Part shown: piece after piece, positions 4,140-40,292 of the stretch | How positions within the stretch are numbered: the first letter of the stretch is position 1 | Layout: each line of letters opens with the position of its first letter | NCBI GenBank assembly: GCA_001577715.1 | Contig: LQAA01000087.1 | Location: 1-40,292, forward strand | Direction of reading: 5' to 3' | Length of the DNA stretch: 40,292 nucleotides | Origin: Candidatus Adiutrix intracellularis | GTDB lineage: Bacteria; Desulfobacterota; Desulfarculia; Adiutricales; Adiutricaceae | Notes under the pieces: generated by a model | The model's database searches: none | What the model saw: the letters and a program-made list of their open reading frames with translations, nothing else | What the model was told of the DNA's origin: nothing | Program-made: the position numbers and the translations under genes

Positions 4140-5010
4140 CATTCCGATTTTAATAACACTCATAACCCAATCGACTACTTCTTCCAACAAATCTCCACCC
4201 TCAGCCATAGCTTTAGCTAAAAATACCGCTTTATCGACGGTATTCATAGTGAAATCTACCCGTCAAATATATACAGCTTCGACCCCTTCTCTAATGCTGC
4301 CGACAATGGTTAATACAAGCGGGTTACACTTCTTCACCCTCTCCACCACCTCGACGGAACCCTTACCATAAACAAACTAACAGCTCATTCCCCCCTCACC
4401 TATAATAACGAGATCGTATTTTTATAAACACTGGCTAACCCTAACGTAATCAAGAATAATTTTAATGCTAGCTTTCACTTAATCCCCGCAAAAGATCATT
4501 AAACCGTAACCCAGACTCCCAACGACCCTCGCCCCGAAAGTATCCGCCAAATCAAGACTAAACTGCGTTTTAACTTTCAAGGCGAAGTATTCAAACTTTT
4601 CATCAAAAATTTTAACGACGCCTGCATCCGAACCCTTCTGATCTGAGACCCAAATACGACCGAAATCCCAGTAAGGCCGCATAAATACGACCTTATATCT
4701 GAGACTATAATTATCTGCATCTCCACTATATAAGCATCTAACCTAAACCAGTCAATAGCAGCCAGTTGCTTAAGTAAACCCTCGCTAAAGTCCAGTTTAT
4801 TACCACCTCGACCTTTGAAAGATACCCCCAGCGTGATAAATCAAAACCTCCACCGTATCCTCACCGCCATCAACGATAGAAATCTTTTTAGTATAAGCCT
4901 GTGGAAATACCTTCTTAACGCCCGTGTTAATATAAATCGCAACCACCATATTGAAATTACTTTCTTTAAACGAATCAAGAACAACCAGTATATAACTATT
5001 CAGCTGTAGG
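4140..5010 (-). pseudogene. glxK: Glycerate kinase (GarK/GlxK type), pseudogene
   Basis: Minus-strand reading gives recognisable type I glycerate kinase blocks in order: DSFKESNFN (usual DSFKGSL), KVFPQAYTKKISIVDGGEDT (usual VADGGEGT), then a jump to GNKLDF...LAAIDWFRLD, WVSDQKGSDAGVV (usual FGPQKGA), YDLVIIGEGG (usual DLVITGEGRID), PLVLTIVGSIREGVEAVY (usual ALAGSIGEG) and a C-terminal helix LLEEVVDWVMSVIK. About 90 residues between the ADGGEG region and the middle domain are missing, so an internal deletion has removed part of the active site. In-frame stops replace several residues, including the Gln of the usual DGQT motif. The enzyme phosphorylates glycerate to 2-phosphoglycerate; that route has been lost here. 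Confidence 0.72.
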
Positions 5011-7889: not shown

Positions 7890-8915
7890 ATGAAAAATGA
7901 ATTTTTGACAGGCCAAAATTATTTGCCCGCGCTAGGCCGAACCTCGGAACTCAGAAAAAGAACCGACCAAATTCTGGTAGCCACCCAGAATACCCCTACC
8001 CTAACCACTCCAAAGAGCAGGAACTCTTTTATAACTAGTCTATCACCACATATATCGTATCTAGTGAAGGACAGCAGCTCCTACGTCGAGGTCACCTCCT
8101 CTAAAGCCCGCCTGGTTTTAGACGCTGATATCAACCTAAGAAAGCTAGGCCTAGAACTTAGCAACAGCCAAGATTTTTCGGAAAACGACTTCTACCTAGT
8201 GCTGAATAAAGACCAGCCCCCCCCAATTTTCATCTCCGCCGCCGAAAGCCTGAATCATCTCAACCTCACCTTTCTGCCCAACTATACTTACTGGAATCAT
8301 ATTCAAGAGCTATCTTTTTTTGCCTCAGCTTTTATGGCCGACAACCGTCTACCCTTCATCAACCATAACGACGAACAGCTACACCAAACTCTTAAATATC
8401 AACAGTACACCCCTAACCACTTTCCCATTCTCCTAGAAGGTATATCCGCGAATATAACTTTTCGCAGTTTCCCAAAAAAGGACTTTCAACTAAGCGATCT
8501 GACCATGTCCACTTCCTCTCTGCCCCACCGAGGTGACAATCTCGCCTCTCGCTTCCACCAAAGCAACCAAAACATAGTTTACGTAACAGATTATGAATTC
8601 CCAAATAACGATACCAATGAATCCAACCATTTTATCGAATTAATCATCAAAGCCAACGTCATTATTAACAACGCTCAGTATCTCTATCTGGAGAACGTGG
8701 CTCAAGAGGGTTGGGACCTTTTCCAGTTCCTTCAGCACAGTCTGTTTACCCCTAAAGGCCAAGGTGAATTTTTTTTGCTTTTTCACCACAACCTCGAACA
8801 ACGACCTAAAACTTCCGACAGTCTTAAAAAAATCCAACCTTATCACCATATTATCAGCGACCATAGGCCAGTGCGAATAGAACTGGCCATTAAAAGCCTG
8901 ACTCTGGAAGTCTGA
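7890..8915 (+). CDS. Unknown 341-residue protein coupled to ispG
   Basis: An uninterrupted frame of 341 codons that I do not recognise. It is polar, rich in Asn, Ser, Leu and His, with no signal peptide, no clear membrane segment and no cysteine. Its stop codon overlaps the ispG start (TGATG at 8913-8917), so translation is coupled to ispG and the gene heads the ispG-proS-rel-rlmN operon. Codon use matches its neighbours. The ATG at 7890 has a weak GGAAG upstream. Sixty-four codons further upstream stay in the same frame but carry four stops, so the present protein may be an N-terminally truncated survivor. In many deltaproteobacteria rseP or dxr precedes ispG, but no HExxH protease or DXR motif is visible here. 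Confidence 0.6.
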   Translation: MKNEFLTGQNYLPALGRTSELRKRTDQILVATQNTPTLTTPKSRNSFITSLSPHISYLVKDSSSYVEVTSSKARLVLDADINLRKLGLELSNSQDFSENDFYLVLNKDQPPPIFISAAESLNHLNLTFLPNYTYWNHIQELSFFASAFMADNRLPFINHNDEQLHQTLKYQQYTPNHFPILLEGISANITFRSFPKKDFQLSDLTMSTSSLPHRGDNLASRFHQSNQNIVYVTDYEFPNNDTNESNHFIELIIKANVIINNAQYLYLENVAQEGWDLFQFLQHSLFTPKGQGEFFLLFHHNLEQRPKTSDSLKKIQPYHHIISDHRPVRIELAIKSLTLEV

Positions 8916-9979
8916 TGCCAACCCGAAGCCTGCGACTAGGGTCACTCCGTCTCGGGGGCGGAGCCCCGGTGAGCGTTCAGACTATGACCAATACTGACAC
9001 CTACGACGTGGCCAATACTCTAGCCCAAATTCGGAGCGTGGTCAAGGCCGGAGCCGAAATAGTCCGCCTAGCCGTCCCCGATAACCGAGCAGCCGAAGCA
9101 CTTCGAGAATTAGTTCAAGAAGCACCGGTACCTCTCATTGCCGACATCCACTTCGACTGGCGCCTAGCCGTAAAGGCTCTAGCCTCCGGCGTAGCCGGCC
9201 TCAGAATCAACCCCGGTAACATCGGTGGGCCGACTAGAGCGCGGAAGGTAGCCGAAGCGGCCGGAGCGGCCAACGCGGTTATCCGGGTGGGGGTCAACAG
9301 CGGCTCACTGGGAAAAAAAAATCTGTCCCACTTCTTGAGCCACCCTAACCCCCAAATCCTAGTAGAAAGCGCTCTAGCCCAGGTTAAAATTCTAGAAGAA
9401 ACAGGCTTTCGCGCCATCAAAGTCTCCCTAAAAAGTAGCCAGGTCATGGAGACCGTGGCCGCAGCCCGCCGCTGGGCCGCGCTCAGCGATATTCCCCAGC
9501 ACATAGGAATCACCGAGGCCGGAAACGCTGCTAGCGGGGCAGTAAAGTCGGCCGTGGGACTAGGTATCCTTCTAACCGAAGGGGTAGGCGATACTATACG
9601 GGTCTCTCTAACCGCCCCCCCGGAAGAAGAAGTGCGGGTAGCCTGGGAAATTCTACGGGCGGCCGGACTTCGTGCCCGCGGGGTCGAGGTGATCTCCTGT
9701 CCAACCTGCGGCCGCACCAAAGGCCCTCTAATCCAGATGGCCACCGAAATTAAAAAACGCTTAGCCGATGTCACTCAGCCTTTAAAAGTGGCCGTGATGG
9801 GCTGTATAGTTAACGGGCCCGGTGAGGCTAGGAACGCCGACGCGGGTATCGCTCTAGGTCAAGGCCACGGTTCTTTTTTTGCCGGTGGCCGCCTTGTAGC
9901 TAGCCGAGTTCCTTACGAAAATCTACTTTCCTTATTAGAAGAGGAAGTCCATAAAATGGAACAGACACATGCCAATTGA
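8915..9979 (+). CDS. ispG: IspG, 4-hydroxy-3-methylbut-2-enyl diphosphate synthase
   Basis: A 354-residue cytosolic enzyme of the MEP isoprenoid pathway. It reduces methylerythritol cyclodiphosphate to HMBPP using a [4Fe-4S] cluster. The N-terminal TIM-barrel domain shows SVQTMTNTDT, LIADIHFDWRLA and GLRINPGNIG. The C-terminal cluster domain carries the three cysteine ligands in SCPTCGRT and MGCIVNGPGEA. Length and motifs match the short bacterial form. The ATG overlaps the stop of the unknown gene, and the C terminus overlaps the proS start by 11 bases. As a low-potential Fe-S enzyme it fits an anaerobic cell. The N terminus (MPTRSLRLGSLRLGGGAP) is normal for the family. Confidence 0.97.
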   Translation: MPTRSLRLGSLRLGGGAPVSVQTMTNTDTYDVANTLAQIRSVVKAGAEIVRLAVPDNRAAEALRELVQEAPVPLIADIHFDWRLAVKALASGVAGLRINPGNIGGPTRARKVAEAAGAANAVIRVGVNSGSLGKKNLSHFLSHPNPQILVESALAQVKILEETGFRAIKVSLKSSQVMETVAAARRWAALSDIPQHIGITEAGNAASGAVKSAVGLGILLTEGVGDTIRVSLTAPPEEEVRVAWEILRAAGLRARGVEVISCPTCGRTKGPLIQMATEIKKRLADVTQPLKVAVMGCIVNGPGEARNADAGIALGQGHGSFFAGGRLVASRVPYENLLSLLEEEVHKMEQTHAN

Positions 9980-11729
9980 AATAAAATTTAACGCCCAGGG
10001 GCAGTCCCTGGGCCTGAGACTATCCCGGAGCTTTGCCCCAACCTTGAAGGAAGACCCGACCGAAGCAGAGGTAATCAGCCACAAACTACTCATCCGGGCC
10101 GGTTTTATTCGTAAACTTTCAGCGGGTATTTATAGCCTCCTACCTTTCGGTCTGCGGTCCCTACGTAAACTAGAACGCATCATCCGCCAAGAAATGGACC
10201 GGGCTGGAGCCCTGGAACTCTTGCTCCCAACCGTACAACCCGGAGAACTCTGGAAGGAAAGCGGCCGCTGGAAATATTACGGAAAGGAACTGCTCCGCTT
10301 CCACGATCGCCATAACCGAGACTACATCATCGGTCCCACCCACGAAGAAGTCATCACCGACTTAGCTCGCCGCGAAATTCATTCCTGGCGGGATTTACCC
10401 ATGAATCTTTACCAAATTCAAACTAAGTTCCGCGACGAAATCCGTCCCCGTTTCGGCCTGATGCGTGGCCGAGAATTCATTATGAAAGACGCCTACAGTT
10501 TCGACGCTGACGAGGCCGGAGCCGAGCAAAGCTACCGGGCTATGTATGAAGCCTACAACCTCATCTTTCAGAACTGCGGCCTTAAATTCGCAGTGGTGGA
10601 AGCCGACAGCGGAGCTATCGGGGGAAGCTCTTCTCACGAATTCATGGTGCTGGCCAAAACTGGCGAAGATAATCTAATTTTCTGCGACTGCGGTTTCGCA
10701 GCTAATCAAGAAAAAGCCGAACTTAAAGACTACGCTACCCTAGCCCCGGAAGAAATGAATCAGGCTCTGGAAAAAATTTACACACCAAATTGCCACCATG
10801 TACCAGAGCTGGCCGCCCTTCTAGATATCCCCACTGGACGCATTATTAAAACCCTGGCCTTTAATGCCGCCGGAAACCCACTTCTAACCCTGATCCCCGG
10901 AGATCGGAAAATAAACCTAACTAAACTCAAAAATGCCTGCAACGGGGCGGAACCCCGCCTACTAACCCCCGAGGAAACTGAAAAAATTACCGGCGCTCCT
11001 CTAGGTTTCATTGGACCGATTAAAACCAAACTACGAGTCCTAGCCGATCTAGGGGTCAAACGTCTAGACGGCGGAGTTATCGGAGCCGGGGAAGCGGATT
11101 GGCACTACCGACATGCCCGCCCAGATCGAGATTTTAAAGTGAACCAATGGCTAGACCTAGCCATAGCCGAAAACGGCGATCCCTGCCCCCGCTGCGGACA
11201 ACCTCTTTCTACCCAGCGAGGTATTGAAGTCGGCCATATCTTCAAACTGGGCGCAAAATATTCCCATGCTCTGGGCGCACTCTATTCACGAGCCGACGGC
11301 CTGGAGGCTCCCCTGATTATGGGCTGCTACGGCATCGGTCTAGGCCGCACCCTAGCCGCCGCGGTTGAGCAAAACCACGACCATAACGGTATCATTTGGC
11401 CTCTACCCCTAGCCCCCTATGAAGCAGCTGTTCTACCCTTACAAGTTCAGAATAAAAATATGACCAGCGCCGCGGAAACCCTTTTTCAGGAACTTCTAAA
11501 CGCGAGAGTGGAAACCGTACTGGATGACCGCGACGAACGACCAGGCTTGAAATTTAAAGATGCTGATCTTATCGGGTACCCCTTTCGAATAACTATTTCC
11601 GAAAAATCTCTGGCTTTAGGCCAAGTGGAATTAAAACGCCGCAATACCCAGGAAATAACCATGCTACCCCTAACCAGCGCAGCTGCGGTAATAACCCAGC
11701 TACGCAACGAAACCGGTATAACGGCATGA
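9969..11729 (+). CDS. proS: ProS, prolyl-tRNA synthetase (bacterial type with editing insertion)
   Basis: A 586-residue class II aminoacyl-tRNA synthetase that charges tRNA-Pro. Motif 1 region: PTLKEDPTEAEVISHKLLI and AGFIRKLSAGIYSLLPFG. Motif 2 region: RPRFGLMRGREFIMKDAYSF. The editing (INS) insertion lies roughly at residues 225-385. Motif 3: GCYGIGLGRTLAA, followed by the anticodon-binding domain. The length is typical of the E. coli-like form. The N terminus is about 17 residues longer than usual (MPIEIKFNAQGQSLGLR), but no later ATG precedes the conserved region, so the ATG at 9969, which overlaps ispG by 11 bases, is kept. The stop overlaps the rel start as ATGA. Position in the operon suggests co-expression with Rel and RlmN. 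Confidence 0.97.
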   Translation: MPIEIKFNAQGQSLGLRLSRSFAPTLKEDPTEAEVISHKLLIRAGFIRKLSAGIYSLLPFGLRSLRKLERIIRQEMDRAGALELLLPTVQPGELWKESGRWKYYGKELLRFHDRHNRDYIIGPTHEEVITDLARREIHSWRDLPMNLYQIQTKFRDEIRPRFGLMRGREFIMKDAYSFDADEAGAEQSYRAMYEAYNLIFQNCGLKFAVVEADSGAIGGSSSHEFMVLAKTGEDNLIFCDCGFAANQEKAELKDYATLAPEEMNQALEKIYTPNCHHVPELAALLDIPTGRIIKTLAFNAAGNPLLTLIPGDRKINLTKLKNACNGAEPRLLTPEETEKITGAPLGFIGPIKTKLRVLADLGVKRLDGGVIGAGEADWHYRHARPDRDFKVNQWLDLAIAENGDPCPRCGQPLSTQRGIEVGHIFKLGAKYSHALGALYSRADGLEAPLIMGCYGIGLGRTLAAAVEQNHDHNGIIWPLPLAPYEAAVLPLQVQNKNMTSAAETLFQELLNARVETVLDDRDERPGLKFKDADLIGYPFRITISEKSLALGQVELKRRNTQEITMLPLTSAAAVITQLRNETGITA

Positions 11730-13930
11730 ACGAAAAATATCTACCTCTAGATAATTTCCCGGTTTACGGAGGCAAGCCAGTCCGAATAGAAGATATTCTG
11801 GATTCACTGCAGATCAACCACCCCAAATCGGACATAACCCTAGTACAGCGAGCCTATATCTATGCCGCTAGCGCTCATCAGGGCATGATGCGCCGCTCGG
11901 GAGAACCCTACCTTAACCACCCCCTGGCAGTGGCTGGTATTCTTTGTGACATGAAGATGGATATGCCCACCGTGGTCGCCGGGCTTCTGCATGACACTAT
12001 AGAAGACACTGAAGCCACTCTGGAAGACGTGGCTAAAAGATTCGGCCGAGACGTAGCCAACATCGTTGACGGGATCACCAAGATCAGCCAAATGAATTTT
12101 TCCTCGGCTAAAGAACGTAAAGCTTCCAATATGCGGAAGATGATTCTGGCTATGCTCACCGATCTGCGAGTTATTCTGGTGAAACTAGCTGACCGGCTAA
12201 ACAACATGAGAACTCTGGGCTACATGCCCGAAGACAAGCAACTGCTCATAGCCGCCGAAACCCTAGAAATTTACGCCCCCCTAGCTTCGCGACTAGGTAT
12301 TCACAAAATCCAAACCGAACTAGAAGACCTCTGCCTCTATTATCTAGAACCCAACACCTACAGCACCATCCGTCTCAATCTCTCCGTCGGTCAATTAAAT
12401 CGTCAGGCCTATGTTGAAGAAGTCATAGAATATCTAGCCCGCCGGGTTAAAGAATTCCACATTCAAGCCCAGATCGAGGGCCGCTCCAAACATATTTACA
12501 GCATCTGGCGAAAGATGTGTGACCAAAACCTAACCTTTGAACAGATTTACGACCTGACCGCCTTCCGGATTATTGTCGACAACATCCAAGACTGCTACGG
12601 AGCTCTAGGGGTCATTCATTCCATTTTTAAAGCCATCCCGGGACGCTTCAAAGATTACATCAATTTACCCAAAGCCAACGGCTACCAATCTCTCCACACC
12701 GCAGTTATCGGTCTCAGAAACACCCGCATGGAGATACAAATCCGTACCCATAATATGCACAACTACGCCGAAAACGGTGTGGCCGCCCACTGGCGCTATA
12801 AAGACGGTAAAGCTATAAGCACTGAAGAAACCCAGCGTATTACCGCCCTGCGCTCCGTTCTAAGCTGGCAGGAAACCTTAATTAACCCTGATGCCTTTCT
12901 TAATTCGGTACGAGAAAGCCTAGCCGAACGCGAAAGTATTTACGTCTTCACCCCCGCCGGTAATGTCAAAGAACTACCCGCTGGAGCCTGCCCTATCGAT
13001 TTCGCCTACTCCATCCACACTATGGTGGGACATAACTGCATCGGGGCCAAGGTTAACGGAGCCATCGCGCCCCTACACCACAAGCTGGCTAACGGCGACA
13101 CCGTAAAAGTACTGACTAACCGTTCCGGTGCCCCTTCCCGTGACTGGCTCTCTTATACAGTTAGCCCCCGAGCTAAAGCTAAAATCCGCCAATGGTTCGC
13201 CTATGAAGAAAGAACTAAGGCGATCGCTTTCGGGCACGATCTTCTGGAAAAAGAAATGCGACGGGCCAAAATAACAAAAGCCCGATTAGACAACCCGGAA
13301 GTTCTAAAAAAACTAGGTTTCTCTAATCTAGATGAGCTAAACGCCGCCATAGCTTTCGGTAAATTTCCCGTGGGTCGGATTCTGCAAATTCTGGCCCCAG
13401 AAAAATACAAACCCGCCTCCCCCCCACCCCAAAAATTCGCCTCTATCCCCCCGGCGGGAAGAACGGCAGAAGCTAACCACGGTATCCTCGTCTCCAACCT
13501 CAGCGATGTCTTCATGCGACTAGCCAAGTGCTGTTCACCCATTGCCGGCGAGCCTATCATCGGCTACATTACCCAGGGGCATGGGGTCTCAATCCACTCG
13601 GCCGCCTGTCTATCCCTAGCCGGCCTGGATCCGGATCGTTTTGTTAACGTTAGTTGGAATAACCAGACGGAAAATAATTTCGAAATCTATTTCCAAGTGC
13701 GCGGGAGCTGCCACCCCGGACTATTTATGGAAATTATGGACCTCATCAACCCTAGAGTGGAAAATATTCTGGAAGCTCACCTAAACGATGACAATCAGGA
13801 AACCCGAATGTTATTCCGCCTTGTCGTTCGCAACCAGGCTCAATTTGAAACTATTCGAATGTTAATAAAAAAAAATCCAGCTATAAAACAAGCCGAACGC
13901 TTCTTCCCCGCCGAAAAAATTGGCTATTGA
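11726..13930 (+). CDS. rel: Rel/SpoT-type bifunctional (p)ppGpp synthetase/hydrolase
   Basis: A 734-residue long RSH protein that makes and degrades (p)ppGpp in the stringent response. Domains in order: HD hydrolase (about 40-200) with H65, H89-D90, E93-D94 and D156; synthetase (about 240-370) with RSKHIYSIWRKM, RFKDYI and NGYQSLHT; TGS (about 410-470, YVFTPAGNVKELP); and a C-terminal zinc-finger/ACT part (CCSPIAGEPIIGY, then ACT at about 655-730). RFKD is the motif of the Rel/SpoT class rather than RelA. All metal ligands of the hydrolase are kept. One oddity is KLADRLNNMRT at 153-163, where the usual KLADRLHNMRT has His at position 159. Starts in an ATGA overlap with proS. Confidence 0.95.
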   Translation: MNEKYLPLDNFPVYGGKPVRIEDILDSLQINHPKSDITLVQRAYIYAASAHQGMMRRSGEPYLNHPLAVAGILCDMKMDMPTVVAGLLHDTIEDTEATLEDVAKRFGRDVANIVDGITKISQMNFSSAKERKASNMRKMILAMLTDLRVILVKLADRLNNMRTLGYMPEDKQLLIAAETLEIYAPLASRLGIHKIQTELEDLCLYYLEPNTYSTIRLNLSVGQLNRQAYVEEVIEYLARRVKEFHIQAQIEGRSKHIYSIWRKMCDQNLTFEQIYDLTAFRIIVDNIQDCYGALGVIHSIFKAIPGRFKDYINLPKANGYQSLHTAVIGLRNTRMEIQIRTHNMHNYAENGVAAHWRYKDGKAISTEETQRITALRSVLSWQETLINPDAFLNSVRESLAERESIYVFTPAGNVKELPAGACPIDFAYSIHTMVGHNCIGAKVNGAIAPLHHKLANGDTVKVLTNRSGAPSRDWLSYTVSPRAKAKIRQWFAYEERTKAIAFGHDLLEKEMRRAKITKARLDNPEVLKKLGFSNLDELNAAIAFGKFPVGRILQILAPEKYKPASPPPQKFASIPPAGRTAEANHGILVSNLSDVFMRLAKCCSPIAGEPIIGYITQGHGVSIHSAACLSLAGLDPDRFVNVSWNNQTENNFEIYFQVRGSCHPGLFMEIMDLINPRVENILEAHLNDDNQETRMLFRLVVRNQAQFETIRMLIKKNPAIKQAERFFPAEKIGY

Positions 13931-13940
13931 ACCCACCGTT

Positions 13941-14993
13941 ATGACCGACCCCCGCCCCAATCTCTTTGACCTGACCATAACTGAGCTATCAACCTTAGCC
14001 GAAAGCCTAGGGGAAAAACCATGGCGAGGTCGTTCATTAGCTATCTGGCTTTTTAAGCGCGGGGTTACAGACTGGAATCTAATGACAGATATGGCCCGAA
14101 GTTTTCACCTGAAGCTAGCCAAGGCAGCCCGACTGGAACTACCGACAGCCCTTGATTTGACTGAAGGCGACGGGGCCCGGAAAATATTATGGCGCCTAAC
14201 TGACGGTCTGAAGGTGGAAAGTGTATTGATTCAGGAACGGGGGCACCAGACTCTCTGCCTATCGTCTCAGGTGGGCTGTGCTCTAGGCTGTCGTTTCTGT
14301 CGAACCGGGACTATGGGCTTCACTCGCAACCTAAGCCCGAGCGAAATTTTAGGGCAAATTATTGGGGCCCAACGCTTTCTAACCCCTAACGAAAATATTA
14401 CCAACCTAGTATTCATGGGCATGGGCGAACCGCTATTAAACCGGACCAACGTAGTTCATAGCCTTAAAGTTATAGGTGATCCCGATCTTATGGCCATATC
14501 TCGCCGGCGTCTTTCCCTATCTACCGTAGGCATTGTACCCGAACTTTACGAACTAGCCCGAACCAGATCAGATTTAGGCCTCACCGTCTCCCTGTCCGCC
14601 CCAGATGACAGATTGCGAAGCCAAATTATGCCCATAAACCGGCGCTACCCTATGGCCGAACTGAAAAAAGCTCTAGCCGCCTGGCCCCTAAGCCACGGGC
14701 GGCGCATCACCATAGCCTATGTTCTTCTAAGAGGGATAAACGACGAACCGGCTCAAGCAGCTAGCCTGAGTCGCTTTCTAGCCGGACTCAAAGTTAAAAT
14801 AAACCTAATCCCCTTCAACTCCTGGCCTGGAGCTCCTTTTGAACCATCAGATCCAAAACGAGTAGCTGCCTTTCAAGAAATTTTAACCCAGAAACACTAC
14901 ACCGCTATTATCCGCTGGTCTAAAGGCGACCGGGTTTCCGCCGCCTGCGGCCAGCTGGCTACAATAAATAAGGAAACCACTATTTTTAAATAA
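13941..14993 (+). CDS. rlmN: RlmN, dual-specificity 23S rRNA/tRNA adenine-C2 methyltransferase
   Basis: A radical-SAM enzyme that methylates A2503 of 23S rRNA and A37 of some tRNAs. From the ATG at 13941 it has 350 residues. The radical-SAM cluster motif is CALGCRFC (C113, C117, C120), preceded by TLCLSSQVG; the methyl-carrying cysteine is C336 in VSAACGQLA. Glycine-rich VFMGMGEPLLN and LSLSTVG segments are present. An in-frame TTG at 13920 would add seven residues and overlap rel by 11 bases like other junctions in this operon; I prefer the ATG, ten bases after the rel stop, but neither has a strong ribosome site. It is the last intact gene of the operon. Confidence 0.95.
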   Translation: MTDPRPNLFDLTITELSTLAESLGEKPWRGRSLAIWLFKRGVTDWNLMTDMARSFHLKLAKAARLELPTALDLTEGDGARKILWRLTDGLKVESVLIQERGHQTLCLSSQVGCALGCRFCRTGTMGFTRNLSPSEILGQIIGAQRFLTPNENITNLVFMGMGEPLLNRTNVVHSLKVIGDPDLMAISRRRLSLSTVGIVPELYELARTRSDLGLTVSLSAPDDRLRSQIMPINRRYPMAELKKALAAWPLSHGRRITIAYVLLRGINDEPAQAASLSRFLAGLKVKINLIPFNSWPGAPFEPSDPKRVAAFQEILTQKHYTAIIRWSKGDRVSAACGQLATINKETTIFK

Positions 14994-16350: not shown

Positions 16351-16879
16351 TTAAAAAAGTTTAGTCGAGCCGAAATTGTAAATTTTATCCACTAACTTAC
16401 CTATAACGGTTTCATTTAAGCCGCTAGTGCCAACATCTTAACCAAGAAATTTAACTACAGATAGATTTTGGAAAAAATTAAAAACCAAACGTGAAACTTC
16501 AACTTAATTTTAGTTTTCCCCCTATTCATCCCGCCAGACCACCCGCGATAATTTTCTAAAATTACTACTGACTCTAAGGTTGGCTAGAAAAATAAGGACA
16601 GAATCTAAGAAAAATTAATGACTAAAAGCAGAGAGCGCGAAGCCACCCTAAAGATAATAAAGAACCCTTACGGGATGCAGACCAACACAAACTCGGCATA
16701 AAAAGCAATACTAAACCTATTAATGCTACCATCACCGAGACCCACATAAACAGTACAGAAGTTACTAGTGATGAACGCAATATAACCCTATCTAAGCTAG
16801 ATGAGATATTAACCAAATTAGCCGTTAAAGCCGCTCACTTCTTATTTATATCGTTTTGTAGATTCGAAAGTAACCCATT
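16351..16879. other. Decayed region, mirror-image frames
   Basis: A hydrophobic minus frame (16622-16816) and a polar plus frame over the same bases are mutual shadows. I cannot tell which was real and recognise neither. Confidence 0.35.
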
Positions 16880-17800: not shown

Positions 17801-17979
17801 ATATTAAAATAAGGATCGCGTATCTACTCTTGAACAATATTGATCATCAATCAAAATTTCAAATTATTTTATGACTAACAACCCGCTCATCAAACAAATA
17901 TTTTAACTAGGGGACTACAGTCGGGATAGCACTCTTAAGAAGCGACTACTATAATGCTGATCCAAACCTACCAATAACA

Positions 17980-18560
17980 ATGGTACTAGAATCTACTCCA
18001 ACCCCGCGCTCTAACCTTTTGGATCACTATCCAAGTGGTCACCCCGATCAAAAACGCTAATATTATCTTCATACCGCTGCTCAAAAGTCGTCTTAACCGC
18101 TAAATTCCAACAAAACGACAGCTACCCAGTTAACCGAGCATCTCAACTCTCCATCATCTTTTCCTCAACCATAGTCGGATCATAATTTTAGAATTCTTCC
18201 ATCCAGACAGCGACGTGTAATAATTCACCACCACTCGTAACCAGTCATACCAATCTTCTACATCTATACCTCTACGACTATGAAAACATGTAAAAACATA
18301 ACCCAAAACGTTACAACTAAAGACTAATTTTTAATTTAAAAACCGCCACCCTAACCCAAAATTCCCGATCACCCGATCCCCACTCACAGTACATAACCCC
18401 AACTGACTAAATACTGTCGTACCTTCCGTACCATATATAGGTAATAAAAAATCTCAATGATTAATGGCATGCCCTTCTAGATTCAGGCTTAAATTGAACT
18501 GAGTCTTCCCATAACTACCCAACCAATCCTCAACCTAGGAAGTCACCACCCTACTTCCCA
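17980..18560 (-). pseudogene. Primase remnant with PriCT-2-like segment (phage or plasmid type)
   Basis: Two minus-strand frames together read IDVEDWYDWLRVVVNYYTSL, then AVWMEEFQNYDPTMVEEKM and DARLTGQLSFCWNLAVKT, with Gln put in for the stop after EEF. This resembles the PriCT-2 region of phage or plasmid primase-polymerases (W-x-x-VGMAL ... LW-x-x-WS-x-x-S-x-x-YD ... KW-x-SF). Many in-frame stops are present. Such proteins start replication of mobile elements, so this may be the trace of a prophage or integrated plasmid. No integrase or attachment site was found. Confidence 0.35.
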
Positions 18561-18879
18561 TTAATACCGCTTATTGCAAAAAATACTCGTTGAAGTTGGT
18601 AGAGTTAAACTGAACTAAACTAACTGATTAACGGCCATACAAACCATTAAAATTCTAGCTACAAATATCGACGTCAGATCTTAATTCCATAACAACCATG
18701 GCAACGCCACCACTTTTACTCCCAAGATATCTTTATTTGAACACTTAATTACGATACTTTAATTTAACTTAATCCCAAAGTTAAGCGCGTAAGAACAGAA
18801 CGACAGAAACATCGGCGCTACAACTTCGAAAATAATACCTAACTTCAAGAATTTAAAACACTTATTTTTTATACACGAG
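18561..18879. other. Decayed region before the intact insertion sequence
   Basis: No gene recognised. The minus strand keeps scattered coding-like stretches that may extend the primase-like pseudogene upstream. Confidence 0.35.
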
Positions 18880-18945
18880 TACACAAAAAAATAGTCACTA
18901 AATTTGAACTCTCTGTTATACTATCTCCTGTTCGAATTTGAGTAT

Positions 18946-18951
18946 GGGAGG
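18946..18951 (+). promoter_or_regulatory. Ribosome binding site of the transposase
   Basis: GGGAGG lies six bases before the ATG at 18958 and decides that start over an upstream in-frame TTG at 18904. Confidence 0.65.
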
Positions 18952-18957
18952 GTTTAT

Positions 18958-20493
18958 ATGGAAACCGATGCAACTAAACAAAGCAAATCCACAACTTCGC
19001 CTGCTCTACACGATCTAATCAAAGTATATTCTGAACTTCAGCAGGATTGCCTAGAAAGTCTCAATCTTGAAATTATTAAAAAATCCCCTGAAGATTTTTT
19101 TAACCTCATAAAGGAAATTAGGCAAGGAACAGCCGAAACCGAACATTTTTTAACTGTGACCCAGATGGAAAATGTAATGCTACAGCTTCAAGAGAACCAA
19201 AAAAGCCTAAATCTAAAGCTATTGTGCAATGAAATCCTAAAAATTAATGAGGCTAATTTGATAGATAAAAAAAAAATCGAATACCGCGAAAAAGGAATCA
19301 AGCTAAGGAAATACCGGCTCTTTCCCAGGACTATTGTGACAATGATAGGCAAGCTACCATTCACGCGAATGGGCTTAATCTCCTCGTCCTCAACTGACGC
19401 CGAAAAACTAAAAGAACTAACAAGTAAAAAAATAATTTTCCCTCTTGATGAAGCCCTTGGTTTAGATGTACTCCCGTTTAAAATAACCGTTCAAGTCATG
19501 CTGAAAATAGCGTATTGGGTACAAGAGTCAACCTCTTATGCGACGGCTAAAAAAGCCTTAACCCACAACACATCCATAAACGTAAACGAAGAAACCATAC
19601 GAGCCGTGACCAATACCGTGGGGAAGCTGGTATTCAGAAACGATGAAGCCACAGCCGAGAAAGTTTATAACTGCCTAAATTCTGGAAAATTATCATTTCC
19701 GAAGATCAAAAATAACCATACGCTGTACCTTAAAGTCGACGAAGCCCTGCTACACACTAGACAAAAAGACGAAGAGGGATTAACTTGGAAGGAAAATAAA
19801 CTCGGTATGGCTTTCTCTACTGAATTCTTTACCTACAATCACGATAATAATGGTAAGAGGTGCCCCCAAGTTGGTAAAAGGGAATACATAATGCTCCTCG
19901 GAGATACCAACGCTTTCAAAAAACACATGTTCGCTTTGGCTCTTCGCAATGGTTACGGAACCTATCGACACACCGTTCTGTTAAGCGATGGGGCTGCTTG
20001 GATCCGAAACATGAAGGAAGAATTGTTCCCGGATGCTCAACAAATCCTCGATTTCTTTCACTTACGAAAAAACGCCTTAATTTTTGCTAAGGCCATATTT
20101 AGCAACGATGAATCTAAGTACCGCCCTTGGACCGATAGACTATGTGAACTCGTAAAGACCAGCAGAATCGCAGAAGCCTTAAGCAAAATAAGAAACCTTA
20201 ATAAACGTCAGCTAGTTAAGAGTAAGTTCGACCTAACTAGATACTTAGAGAACAACAAAGACAACATCGATTATGCTTCGTATTTAAAAAAAGGTTGGAT
20301 TATCAGCAACGACACTATTGAAAGCGGGAACAGAATCGCCCTCCAACAACGTTTAAATCAACCTGGGATGCGTTGGAATATTGAAAGTGGTCAGTACATT
20401 CTAACCTTAATATCTAAAGCCAAAAGTGGACTTTGGAAACAAGATGTTGAAGAAGCTCTCTTTAAGTATTACAACCTTGAAAGAAGTATCTGA
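18958..20493 (+). CDS. ISKra4-family-like transposase
   Basis: From the ATG at 18958 the protein has 511 residues. The catalytic triad of a DDE transposase can be placed: Asp in YLKVDEALLHT, Asp in VLLSDGAAWIRNM and Glu in NDTIESGN. Around them lie QILDFFHLRKNA and QQRLNQPGMRWN...SGLW, the pattern of ISKra4 transposases (QILDFYH; QRLKxAGMRW...SGxW). The N-terminal 150 residues are helical and charged, probably DNA-binding. An ISLre2-type assignment is the alternative, as the families share the fold. An upstream in-frame TTG (18904) would add 18 residues but lacks a ribosome site. Codon use is more AT-rich than the neighbouring housekeeping genes, fitting recent acquisition. Confidence 0.85.
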   Translation: METDATKQSKSTTSPALHDLIKVYSELQQDCLESLNLEIIKKSPEDFFNLIKEIRQGTAETEHFLTVTQMENVMLQLQENQKSLNLKLLCNEILKINEANLIDKKKIEYREKGIKLRKYRLFPRTIVTMIGKLPFTRMGLISSSSTDAEKLKELTSKKIIFPLDEALGLDVLPFKITVQVMLKIAYWVQESTSYATAKKALTHNTSINVNEETIRAVTNTVGKLVFRNDEATAEKVYNCLNSGKLSFPKIKNNHTLYLKVDEALLHTRQKDEEGLTWKENKLGMAFSTEFFTYNHDNNGKRCPQVGKREYIMLLGDTNAFKKHMFALALRNGYGTYRHTVLLSDGAAWIRNMKEELFPDAQQILDFFHLRKNALIFAKAIFSNDESKYRPWTDRLCELVKTSRIAEALSKIRNLNKRQLVKSKFDLTRYLENNKDNIDYASYLKKGWIISNDTIESGNRIALQQRLNQPGMRWNIESGQYILTLISKAKSGLWKQDVEEALFKYYNLERSI

Positions 20494-30510: not shown

Positions 30511-32779
30511 TCTTAAAGAACAAATAACATGCCTGTATCCGAATCCTATGGGTACCATTAATAACTCTGCTGACAAGCAAGAAATATTAGTGTATACTAT
30601 TTATTATATTAGTTTTTAACAGCTCTATTTGTATTTTAGCTGTAATTTTTTCTTATATACTAAATAACGTGACTATCTATATTAGAGCGTAGCACAATTT
30701 ACTTATTATATTTCTTAAAAAATTTATAACTAAAGAAATCCCAAAAATTACACCTTTTTATAACGGGCCCTTGCTACTGAGTGATTCTCACTCATTCTTT
30801 CCGAAGGGAAGACCCAATGGCGCTGCAAAAGAACTATCAAATGGGTATTGAGTATATGTTAATTTAAATATTCCTTAACTAGTCAATGTAATTAGCGACC
30901 TGTGTTCTTACTGCGGTATTAAGTTATACGCCAGATGATGTAAATATAACTTTTATACAAAAAAAGAATATTGAATACCGAGATGTTTAATAAAGTATCA
31001 ATTTTTGCGAGTAAAATTATTTAACAATGGGTTAGGACCTATCTACGCGAGACACATCCTGATCGGAGCAACCCTTATATTTTAATGCATTATTCTGATG
31101 TATACTTTTTGAAAAATAATAGTGTAAGTATCGATCTGTTGGAGAGCCTTATATCAAAGAAAACGTTACAATATACTCATAATAAATTTCGTAACTATTA
31201 AATGGATATTAGCAAAATAAATAATTCCGAAAATAATACTTAAAACCTTTTCAAAATAAGATTAATTTTGAAATTGACGATACTCTGTAAACATAGCTAA
31301 ACTAATGATCTTTCGCTACAACAATGATATATACTTCCTATCTAATAAGATTATTAACAACACTGTTATAGTGAATTAAATTTGTTTTTAAATAATTATA
31401 TTGAAAATATCGGATACTTTTAGTTAGGGTACGTTTATAAGTTGTTTACTAGAAAATTCAATGTTGCCATTATTTGTGGTTTAGTTGATTATAATAAAAA
31501 GTAAACTAGATCACTTTGTGAGCGTAGAAAAATATTTATTTACTAACTGACAAACAAAAGAGCTATACGATATAGATATTAAGCGTTACGACATAACCTA
31601 CATCGCATTTTCAGAATGAAAAGACTCGATAGCTTTGCTTAACATTTATCACCGCGTATTATTATTGTCCGTGCCTGTGATATTCAGTGATACTGATATG
31701 GAACTACCCGATACCTACAAGATATGAGAGAAAATTCAAATACAATACCCTGAGCGAAAGTTTATTTGTACCAAAATTGAAAGCTCCGCTCTCAAAGATT
31801 AGCGCCGTTTTACCCCGCCATTACGAACTGTTCAGTGATATTACACTATTTACAAAAATACACCTGCACTTATACTCTTGAAAGATAACATCCATAAACC
31901 CGCTATAAGAGTAATAACTTTTCTTGGTGTTAGCAGCAATAAAAGTTATAACTATACCTTTTACAACGGTTCTGTTAGCTAGATAAAAAACATCTCGCAA
32001 CTTAATCGTATGTCGATATTAAACTGGGGGTCACACGAGCTATATCTATATATTTTTACCGATGATTTTTCAGTGAGCTGCACATATAAAAAAGACATTC
32101 ACCATATCGGGAGCATCATATGTCTTAAATCTTCAACGCGATATATATGATTTACCGAAAATTGAGTCTTCTAATAACTTGAGCCGAGTAAACCATCCGT
32201 TTTATAATTCTGGATAAAACCGTTACTCAAGGATCCTATTTTTAAACTGGGTGTAACTAATCAGAGCGGATCTAAACGACTATTGCCACTTACACACTCC
32301 CTCTTTCTATTTCTGCGTCAAGCTATTAAACTTTTCCCATACAAAGCAAGTATGTCCCTCGCCACCCAAATTATATCCCTTCTCCTACAAAAAAATACAA
32401 GACGTAAATGGTTACGAGTAAAGATAGCGATACTTTCTACTCACTTCGCTAAAATCAGAATTTTAACACGAGAACTTCAATACAAGACTTACCATAAAAT
32501 AATTATCTAAACTGAGTTTCTATCGATTTTTCCACTATAATATACTAAAATTATTATTAAAGAATCTATTTATTTACAATGTATCTACCCATTTAGATAA
32601 TATTTTATTATTAGTTTATATCAGATATTATGTTATTATTAGGAAGAATTTAACAAATTAGATTTTTTATTCAATAAAAAAGCTATTTAAAAGTAAATCT
32701 ACACTCTACTTTTAATATTTTATGAAGAAACAGCCTTTCAATAAACCGCACCTTATGTGTTTTTTTAATTTAATTTATT
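30511..32779. other. Long AT-rich decayed region
   Basis: About 2.3 kb without a supportable gene. A plus-strand piece near 30890-30950 reads LCSYCGIKLYA, a possible zinc-binding start of a transposase-like protein, but nothing around it confirms this. Short frames at 31687-31881 and 32283-32510 look accidental. One perfect hairpin lies at 30778-30794. Confidence 0.4.
30778..30794. repeat. Perfect 7-base hairpin
   Basis: TGAGTGA and TCACTCA are separated by TTC. No T run follows, so it is not a classical terminator. It may be a leftover of an insertion-sequence end or an operator. Confidence 0.4.
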
Positions 32780-34371: not shown

Positions 34372-34722
34372 ATGCTTAAGGATTTTTACCAGGAAGAATT
34401 GGGTACTCTAAGGGAAATAACGGTTGAATTTGCCAGAACCTACCCAGCCCTGGCCCCAATACTGAGGGCCCAAGGCGCCGACTCGGATGTAGAACAACTA
34501 CTGGAAGAGGTGACTTTTTTATCTAGCCTGGTTCGTCAGCGGCTAGCCGAAAGCTTTCCTGACCTCATTCAGTCTTTGCTGCAAATTTTCTATCCCCATC
34601 TTTTGCACCCTATGCCTTCCTATACCCTAATGCGTTTCAAGTCGGTGCAAAGTTTTACGGGAACCGTCCGTCTACCTAAGGTCTCCGAAGTAGCCTCTAT
34701 TCCGGCATCAACATTAAATTGA
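34372..34722 (+). pseudogene. tssF: TssF (type VI secretion baseplate subunit), N-terminal fragment
   Basis: The 116-codon frame matches the N terminus of TssF/VasA: MLKDFYQEELGTLREI, FARTYPALAPIL, SDVEQLLEEVTFLSSLVRQ and FPDLIQSLLQIFYPHLLHP are close to family consensus (FARxYPxLAxxL; DPxVERLLEGxAFLxARxxxKLDDEFPEL). Functional TssF has about 600 residues, so over 80% is missing. The fragment ends abruptly after SEVASIPASTLN, and the next gene begins 21 bases later, which suggests a deletion that removed the rest of tssF and its neighbours. No other T6SS gene is in the window. There is no clear ribosome site. Confidence 0.8.
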
Positions 34723-34743: not shown

Positions 34744-35310
34744 ATGAACAATAAAAAAATTATGCTAGGCGTAATGCTAATTTGGCTAGCAGGAGTTATC
34801 TTTATCGTGCAAGGCATCAGTGAAACCCCATTGCCACCCACCCTACTTGGGGTAGTGACAGCGGCTTCACCTCCGCCTTCGGCCTCGACAGTGACGGAGA
34901 TACCGCTTAATGAATTACAGGATTTTTTAACCTGCCGAAACGGCCAGACTGCCGGCCAGGGTACCTTTCAGAACTGGCATAGCTATTATGACGACCAGGG
35001 TCGCTATGTTGTCCTAATCCATTTTGAAGGCCACCTAGGAGACTATACCCCCCACCTCCTCGATTTGGCGGCGACCAGCGTCGTGTATGTGGATTTTCAC
35101 GGAACCTGGGAATGGTCTCAAGAAAAAATCTTGGAAAAGAACGGACCCGTAAGCCTGGCGCACCTGGGAAAACATAAAGAATTTATTCGCCTGAGCATCA
35201 ACTTCAATGAAAAAGAAACACCTGCTGCGGTAAGCGTCGAGGTTCTGCACAAAGACCAGGTTCTGGCGTTACGTTTTATCTTTACCAAGAAAAAACCGGA
35301 TAAAAAATAA
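34744..35310 (+). CDS. Unknown membrane-anchored 188-residue protein
   Basis: An intact frame with no family I can name. Residues 1-8 are basic, 9-27 form one hydrophobic segment (IMLGVMLIWLAGVIFIVQG) with no obvious cleavage or lipobox site, so it is probably a signal anchor; residues 35-55 are Pro/Ser/Thr-rich, and the remainder is beta-rich with YVVLIHFEGHLGD, VVYVDFHGTWEW and RLSINFN repeats of alternating hydrophobics. The C-terminal half faintly recalls AMIN-type periplasmic domains. GC and codon use match the intact genes. It follows the tssF stump and a good promoter, so a role in a former type VI secretion cluster is possible but is inference only. Confidence 0.7.
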   Translation: MNNKKIMLGVMLIWLAGVIFIVQGISETPLPPTLLGVVTAASPPPSASTVTEIPLNELQDFLTCRNGQTAGQGTFQNWHSYYDDQGRYVVLIHFEGHLGDYTPHLLDLAATSVVYVDFHGTWEWSQEKILEKNGPVSLAHLGKHKEFIRLSINFNEKETPAAVSVEVLHKDQVLALRFIFTKKKPDKK

Positions 35311-39565: not shown

Positions 39566-40198
39566 TTACCCGACTAAGTGAGAAAACAGAGGCAGAAAGC
39601 CTGCTCTTTAGCAGACTTCGCAACGAGAGCGATGGGCCAAGCAGAGAGCCCGGCCATAGGTAATAGTCTAGTAGGAAAAAAGAGTCTATTTTTTACGGGA
39701 GGTCAGGTCGACTAAATTGGTTTCCATCTGTTCCAGGTTCTAGCTGACACTAAAGTCCAGGTAGCGACTGCCCCGATCCAGAGGTGGATATCCCCCCCTT
39801 TAAACCTAGCAAACCAAAGGTTTTACCCCGCACCACGTTAGCGATTTTGTAACCCACGCCAGGAAGTTTGAGCAGATCTTGAAGATCGCGAGACACCTGG
39901 CCCCATATTTAAAAGTGAACGCCTAACTCAGGACGATGAAGTTTTTAGCCTTAAATACGGAGAAAACTACAGGACCAAATCAAAACCTCCATCGCGCCCG
40001 AATCAGCGGTGGCTAGAGCAGTCGCATACAAATAACTCTAAAAAAGGACCACGGTGGTCTGATTAATCCAAGTATCGATCCACTGAGCTGAAAGCGCCAT
40101 AGCCGCCAGAATCTAAAAAAAGATAGCGCGATCTAGGTCGTATTCAACCGCAGGATAATATTTATCAAAAAAATCAACTTTTTACCTCGGGTCATCAT
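39566..40198 (-). pseudogene. nth: Endonuclease III (Nth), pseudogene
   Basis: The minus strand shows almost the whole of Nth in order: ATG at 40198 after AGGGGGTT, DKYYPAVEYDLDRA, ALSAQWIDTWIN (usual LSAQTTDKRVN), YATALATADSGAMEVLI, the helix-hairpin-helix LLKLPGVGYKIANVV carrying the lysine position, VDIHLWIG (usual VDTHVLRV, catalytic Asp), LEQMETNLVDL, and CLAHRSRCEVC of the Fe-S cluster loop. The fourth cluster cysteine is missing, the catalytic lysine site (usual GVGRKTA) reads GYKIA, and stops and at least two frameshifts break the gene. Nth removes oxidised pyrimidines from DNA as a glycosylase/AP lyase. Its loss means weaker repair of oxidised cytosine. Confidence 0.78.
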
Positions 40199-40292
40199 AA
40201 CCCCCTAAGCACCGGGGCTTTCAAAAATTATACGATGGTTAACTAGATTCATGCTTTTAATGTGCCCAGCTAGTATTTTCTGCTCACCAAAA
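40199..40292. other. Window end, no gene recognised
   Basis: The sequence upstream of the nth remnant holds its former ribosome site and no other recognisable signal. Confidence 0.4.

What the first reader, a model, noticed from the sequence alone, without database searches (positions are those of the whole stretch)
39566..40198. Loss of endonuclease III could explain the stop-codon spectrum of the pseudogenes
Seen: nth is a clear pseudogene. Known: Nth repairs oxidised pyrimidines, and unrepaired oxidised cytosine gives C-to-T changes. Seen: most stops in the recognised pseudogenes are one G:C to A:T transition away from Gln, Arg or Trp codons. Inference: the repair loss and the decay pattern may be linked.
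Basis: inference. Interest (0 to 1): 0.55.

Follow-up and report, generated by a model that had tools for sequence, protein, structure and literature searches.

The report
Broken nth gene in eroding symbiont
A termite-gut symbiont has lost its endonuclease III repair gene and its dead genes mutate mostly from C to T, but that pattern is what bacteria with intact repair also show, so the repair loss may add to the decay without being needed to explain it.

Summary
The window lies in a decaying 2.07-Mb genome of the genus Candidatus Adiutrix. nth is a real pseudogene: minus strand 40178-39611, next to cooT, with 6 in-frame stops and 4 frameshifts; the six held congeners each have a strong Nth-type match without stops. 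No other HhH-GPD protein and no Nei was found. Fpg, MutS and ExoIII are intact. The "stop spectrum" is largely forced by the genetic code: every stop lies one G:C>A:T transition from Gln, Arg or Trp, and no other transition from a sense codon makes a stop. I therefore rebuilt ancestral bases at conserved sites in three pseudogenes. The bias is real: 105 of 166 changes are G:C>A:T transitions; implied equilibrium GC is 0.19 (95% interval 0.12-0.26). Published values for repair-intact Salmonella typhi are 0.19-0.24, so nth loss is not needed. The C>T excess follows the DNA strand rather than gene orientation, and G:C>T:A stays low although MutY appears missing too; both favour cytosine deamination over oxidation. 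The family's only UDG-like protein lacks the UDG motifs, an older rival cause. nth itself shows the highest G:C>A:T share (26/33 against 61/111, P=0.015; 0.07-0.18 in stricter tests), so a modest contribution stays open.

The parts
39611..40178 (-). nth (endonuclease III) unitary pseudogene: 184 aligned codons, 6 in-frame TAG, 4 frameshifts; main frame break between 39801 and 39781
   Evidence: tblastn; frameshift-tolerant profile alignment; the G003 relative is an nth equivalog (253.9 bits, cut-off 211.7)
40202..40291 (-). C-terminal end of cooT, cut by the contig end; a short ORF matching it lies upstream of nth in three relatives, so the pseudogene sits at the ancestral nth locus
   Evidence: 68-72% identity to upstream ORFs of G001, G004, G006; PF10133, E 5.9e-4
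4140..4991 (-). glycerate kinase (PF02595) pseudogene used for the spectrum; the aligned part is 4140-4854
   Evidence: 10 of 10 relatives aligned; many segments are weakly alignable
31602..32123 (+). PAPS-reductase-domain remnant (PF01507) with 5 in-frame stops; dropped from the spectrum because the profile alignment was weak
8915..14993 (+). intact ispG-proS-relA-rlmN block, syntenic in congeners; used as the living-gene control

Best explanation
nth is one of many genes lost during genome erosion of an Adiutrix lineage. Its decay, and that of its neighbours, follows the ordinary AT-biased mutation of bacteria, mostly cytosine deamination in single-stranded DNA at replication (inferred), now visible because selection no longer removes it. 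The stop codons follow from that bias and the genetic code; TAG dominates because the GC-rich ancestors wrote Gln mainly as CAG. Nth loss is a passenger that may add modestly to the C>T rate. Shown: pseudogene, missing backups, spectrum, strand asymmetry, living genes under the same pressure. Inferred: deamination as the lesion, passenger status.
For: Equilibrium GC from the three pseudogenes is 0.187 (0.118-0.256), overlapping published values for repair-intact S. typhi (0.186-0.238) and Y. pestis (0.241-0.278). The code allows only G:C>A:T among transition routes to stops. Living genes of this genome show the same pressure at conserved codon positions 1 and 2: 99 G:C>A:T of 1310 GC sites against 14 A:T>G:C of 1150 AT sites. 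C>T exceeds G>A on the coding strand of the minus-strand pseudogenes nth and gk (41/88 against 24/121, P=7e-5) and G>A exceeds C>T in plus-strand living genes (80/762 against 19/548, P=1e-6); GC skew of the plus strand is negative in 20 of 20 2-kb steps. The bias therefore follows the DNA strand, not transcription. NamZ, on a contig with mostly positive skew, leans the matching way (24/71 against 16/90, P=0.027). G:C>T:A is only 20 of 166 changes although no MutY was found. nth is about as decayed (33/153) as NamZ (51/275).
Against: nth decayed only in an nth-deficient cell and has the largest G:C>A:T share (26/33 against 61/111, P=0.015; with the local-quality filter P=0.069 and 0.087; against NamZ alone P=0.10 and 0.18). 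Transition:transversion at GC sites is higher in nth (32:3) and NamZ (40:7) than at fourfold sites of living genes (54:28; P=0.005 and 0.023), as expected if the spectrum shifted recently, though multiple hits on the longer branch would do the same. No Nei backup was found, and the only genus member without nth is also the AT-shifted one (43% against 53-62% GC).
Confidence: 0.68

Rival explanations
1. One reading: loss of Nth, with no Nei behind it, leaves oxidised or reduced cytosine derivatives unrepaired and raises C>T mutation enough to shape pseudogene decay and the fall in GC.
For: No other nth and no nei; C. jejuni precedent; nth's own decay is the most G:C>A:T-rich; only the nth-less member of the genus is AT-shifted and pseudogene-rich in the stretches sampled.
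Against: Bias no stronger than in repair-intact bacteria; few G:C>T:A changes in a genome apparently without MutY suggests low oxidative load; strand pattern fits deamination; one lineage only, so loss and AT shift cannot be ordered.
Confidence: 0.2
2. Loss of uracil repair is the main cause: the family's only UDG-superfamily protein has lost the UDG motifs, so deaminated cytosine is poorly repaired throughout the family, and the AT shift appears where selection is relaxed.
For: Eight of 9 family genomes searched (G000-G005, G007, G008) have one UDG-like match and G006 none; all eight lack the motif A GE.PG and the motif B HP that two outgroup proteins keep. The own protein scores 43.6 bits against a family-4 UDG cut-off of 125.3.
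Against: GC-rich congeners have the same protein yet keep 53-62% GC, so it is not sufficient. Other uracil repair routes (endonuclease V, ExoIII-type incision) were not tested. Loss of motifs was not tested biochemically.
Confidence: 0.12

Closest known systems
Endonuclease III (Nth; TIGR01083, PF00730 HhH-GPD)
   Same: Homologous over 184 codons; found beside cooT as in congeners; the two invariant Lys, two invariant Asp and 3 of 4 C-terminal Cys columns still read the same
   Different: Six stops and four frameshifts: not a coding gene; retention of those residues is near what 68% overall retention gives by chance
C. jejuni nth deletion mutants (PMC6467930)
   Same: A nei-less bacterium losing nth; the expected signature is C>T and G>A
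   Different: C. jejuni has Ung and MutY and is microaerobic; here MutY was not found, canonical UDG motifs are missing, and the genus lives in the largely anaerobic termite gut (recalled)
Repair-gene loss in Desulfovibrio symbionts of Trichonympha (PMC7608387)
   Same: Termite-gut symbionts with pseudogenes and lowered GC, where loss of dnaQ and fpg was proposed as direct cause
   Different: Other genes lost; fpg is intact here
Universal AT mutation bias in bacteria (PMC2936535)
   Same: G:C>A:T transitions dominate; equilibrium GC about 0.2
   Different: Measured from SNPs in repair-intact clonal pathogens, not from old pseudogenes

Membership tests
Unitary pseudogene of nth | Homology to Nth above chance | tested here: met
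   Profile score 258 against 23-30 shuffled; tblastn to 22 of 22 relatives
Unitary pseudogene of nth | Open frame destroyed | tested here: met
   6 in-frame stops, 4 frameshifts in 188 alignment steps
Unitary pseudogene of nth | Neutral decay (no excess protection of codon positions 1 and 2) | tested here: met
   Three pseudogenes pooled: G:C>A:T 87/321 at positions 1 and 2 against 18/49 at position 3, P=0.18
Unitary pseudogene of nth | No intact paralogue in the genome | tested here: met
   0 HhH-GPD matches at E<=0.001 in an assembly 91.6% complete; ancestral locus next to cooT
nth-type mutator spectrum | G:C>A:T transition excess above the bacterial background | tested here: not met
   Equilibrium GC 0.187 (0.118-0.256) overlaps repair-intact S. 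typhi 0.186-0.238
nth-type mutator spectrum | Excess confined to the period after nth loss | tested here: inconclusive
   nth 26/33 against others 61/111, P=0.015; filtered P=0.069-0.087; against NamZ alone P=0.10-0.18
nth-type mutator spectrum | No Nei backup | tested here: met
   Single Fpg/Nei-family protein is an Fpg equivalog (223.9 bits, cut-off 203.3; Nei model 68 of 252)
Family-4 UDG (the UDG-like protein) | Motif A GE(A/G)PG and motif B HPS.. | tested here: not met
   Alignment; motifs as given in the abstract of PMC10359453 (search listing)

The most novel reading that the evidence does not exclude
This lineage may be a natural bacterium with no working pyrimidine-acting DNA glycosylase at all: UDG motifs lost in the whole family, no Nei, no MutY found, and Nth, the last one, now dead. 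The nth loss would then be the step that tipped the genome from about 60% GC to 43% and shifted the pseudogene spectrum further to C>T.
Probability: 0.2. Interest if true: 0.6.

Novelty: new member of a known kind. Interest (0 to 1): 0.32.

Why it matters
Which repair losses drive AT enrichment and gene decay in symbionts, and which are passengers, is an open question. This genus offers a compact test: one nth-less lineage and six nth-bearing congeners, most of which share the loss of canonical UDG motifs and, apparently, of MutY. The case also shows that counting stops one transition from Gln/Arg/Trp cannot support a mutator claim.

Tried and rejected
(1) Pseudogene candidates dropped before counting: the PAPS-reductase remnant (profile score 49 against 25-41 shuffled); a 535-aa G003 query whose frame carries stops in most relatives, so an antisense artefact; a metallophosphoesterase-like candidate at 25% identity not followed; other weak candidates not followed. 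(2) Antisense long ORFs of the GC-rich relatives produced false pseudogenes; a codon-position GC filter removed most. (3) Recoded TAG: all 6 nth stops and 5 of 7 NamZ stops are TAG (P about 0.03), but TAG ends 14 of 126 long ORFs, frameshifts and TAA stops are present, and PylS was not found above cut-off in this genome; rejected. (4) Mismatch-repair or ExoIII loss: MutS, MutS2 and ExoIII-family ORFs are intact. MutL, UvrABC, endonuclease IV and V, AlkD, Tag and Ada were not tested. (5) Pfam on the read-through frames did not recognise nth, so profile scans undercount pseudogenes here. (6) Paper searches gave no hits. One search (terms Adiutrix, base excision repair, endonuclease III, nth; at least 2; 8 of 1,248 hits listed) listed no paper on Adiutrix repair genes; this is not evidence that none exists.

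Full report
WHERE IT IS. The window is contig C86 (1-40292) of a 2,072,414-base, 154-contig assembly, 91.6% complete. RelA of the window is 71% identical to 'Deltaproteobacteria bacterium Smac51' and 70% to 'Candidatus Adiutrix sp. TD116_bin19'; six genomes of the same genus are held (G001-G006). The species itself is unnamed in the tools. The pseudogene regions of the window (20.7 kb) have 35% GC and the intact genes 52%. Sampled stretches of the genome have 43% GC, with 60% in long open frames; sampled congeners have 53-62% GC and 87-94%.

THE OBSERVATION. nth is a pseudogene on the minus strand, 40178-39611. Nth proteins of relatives match in two frames. The frameshift-tolerant alignment to 22 relatives gives 184 codons, 6 stops and 4 frameshifts. 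A cooT end lies just upstream, as a matching short ORF does in three congeners, so this is the ancestral locus. The genome has no other HhH-GPD match at E<=0.001, whereas 39 of the 39 relatives searched have at least one (whose tally of 39 of 40 counts the own genome). The Fpg/Nei family has one intact member, an Fpg equivalog; Nei is not found. MutS, MutS2 and an ExoIII-family ORF are intact. MutY: among the six congeners only G006, with a partial match at a contig edge, has a second HhH-GPD match above 40 bits, and the three-contig genome G002 has none; genus-wide absence of MutY is my inference from those counts.

WHY THE STOP COUNT IS WEAK EVIDENCE. Enumeration of the code shows 23 single-base routes from sense codons to stops; five are transitions and all five are G:C>A:T, from Gln, Arg or Trp. 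Every stop in any pseudogene therefore lies one such transition from Gln, Arg or Trp. With ancestors inferred, 8 of 17 stops in three pseudogenes sit at positions where congeners agree clearly: 7 Gln or Trp, 1 Glu. Unbiased mutation of these genes would make 24% of stops by this route, the measured spectrum 66%. The bias is real but must be measured over all sites.

THE SPECTRUM. I used nth, the glycerate kinase pseudogene of the window, and a NamZ (PF07075) pseudogene just downstream of fpg on contig C22. Sites counted are identical in all congeners available (at least 3) and in at least 80% of the other family members; codons within 3 of a frameshift or indel were dropped. At codon positions 1 and 2: 605 sites, 144 changes, 87 G:C>A:T. 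At all positions: 654 sites, 166 changes, 105 G:C>A:T (0.284 per GC site), 20 G:C>T:A, 10 G:C>C:G, 12 A:T>G:C (0.042 per AT site), 10 A:T>C:G, 9 A:T>T:A. Leave-one-out controls with living copies in congeners changed at 1.5-6.4% of sites with a G:C>A:T share of 0.12-0.35, so misread ancestors cannot make the pattern. The implied equilibrium GC is 0.187 (0.118-0.256). For repair-intact pathogens the published values are 0.186-0.238 (S. typhi), 0.241-0.278 (Y. pestis) and 0.265-0.34 (B. anthracis) (PMC2936535, passages read). Those come from SNPs and mine from old pseudogenes, so the comparison is rough.

TESTS OF THE LINK. Every neutral change in nth happened without Nth, which makes nth itself the cleanest sample. 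Its G:C>A:T share is 26/33 against 61/111 in the other two (P=0.015). With segments of poor local alignment removed P is 0.069 (positions 1, 2) and 0.087 (all); against NamZ alone 0.099 and 0.176. Glycerate kinase aligns worst and has the most transversions, so part of the contrast is probably alignment noise. nth and NamZ are about equally decayed (0.216 and 0.185 of sites), so NamZ may also have decayed mostly without Nth, which weakens the test. Against fourfold sites of four living genes, transition:transversion at GC sites is higher in nth (32:3 against 54:28, P=0.005) and NamZ (40:7, P=0.023); against positions 1 and 2 of the same genes (99:26) it is not significant for nth (P=0.14).

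WHICH LESION. In the minus-strand pseudogenes C>T exceeds G>A on the coding strand (41/88 against 24/121); in plus-strand living genes G>A exceeds C>T (80/762 against 19/548). Both mean more C>T on the minus strand, the strand richer in G in 20 of 20 steps of the window. At fourfold sites of the same living genes the rates point the same way (G>A 17/39, C>T 37/134). The asymmetry therefore follows the DNA strand rather than transcription, the usual mark of cytosine damage in the strand exposed at replication (general knowledge). Deamination and oxidation of cytosine could both do this. Two facts favour deamination: G:C>T:A is rare (20/166) though no MutY was found, and PMC6467930 reports that mutY loss raises mutation over 100-fold in C. 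jejuni, mainly as G:C>T:A, far above the effect of nth loss (passages). PMC2936535 also reports, citing others, that repair-deficient Salmonella strains show more transversions than transitions, the opposite of what is seen here. Nth also acts on some non-oxidative pyrimidine lesions such as dihydrouracil (recalled, from no call), so its loss could matter without oxygen.

AN OLDER REPAIR LOSS. The UDG-superfamily search finds one weak member in 8 of 9 family genomes searched (G000-G008; none in G006), against strong members in 4 of 4 other genomes of the order. Aligned, all eight lack the motif A pattern and the motif B His-Pro kept by two outgroup proteins. If this means no uracil excision, the whole family is UDG-deficient, and the GC-rich congeners show that such a loss alone does not lower GC while selection is strong.

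VERDICT. The pseudogene and the bias are real; nothing found replaces Nth; the claim that the loss explains the stops is unnecessary, since code plus ordinary AT-biased mutation suffice. A modest contribution of the nth loss is not excluded. Published precedent: PMC7608387 proposes loss of dnaQ and fpg as direct cause of pseudogenes and lower GC in Desulfovibrio symbionts of Trichonympha (passages), so this kind of proposal is not new.

Noticed in passing
L037:486-1250 and L110-L116: The only UDG-superfamily protein of the Adiutrix family has lost the family-4 motifs A and B in all eight genomes where it was found; it may have a new role.
   Followed up: partly
L170 (G002); G004:C43; G008:C180: Pyrrolysyl-tRNA synthetase (TIGR02367 above cut-off) occurs in two Adiutrix congeners and one family relative but was not found above cut-off in the window's genome.
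   Followed up: no
window 39611-40178; L036:4747-5909: TAG makes up 6 of 6 nth stops and 5 of 7 NamZ stops, slightly more than the measured spectrum predicts (P about 0.03); C>T is also highest at CpA (20/39 against 39/164 at CpC).
   Followed up: partly
window 1-40000: GC skew of the plus strand is negative in 20 of 20 2-kb steps although most intact genes lie on that strand, so these genes seem to run against the leading strand.
   Followed up: partly
window 18904-20493: Intact 529-aa ISKra4/ISLre2-like transposase inside heavily decayed DNA.
   Followed up: no
window 34372-34722: N-terminal remnant of type VI baseplate gene tssF, followed by an intact 188-aa ORF (34744-35310) of unknown kind.
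   Followed up: no
window 17951-18588 and 16351-16485: Remnants of an inverse-autotransporter beta-domain and of a DUF4277 domain, minus strand.
   Followed up: no
window 7890-8915: Open 341-aa frame beside ispG with no Pfam match.
   Followed up: no
L042: relA of the small congener G001 carries one TGA inside the match: sequencing error or the start of decay.
   Followed up: no
L106:9022-9118: A tRNA-SeC gene is kept in the decaying genome.
   Followed up: no
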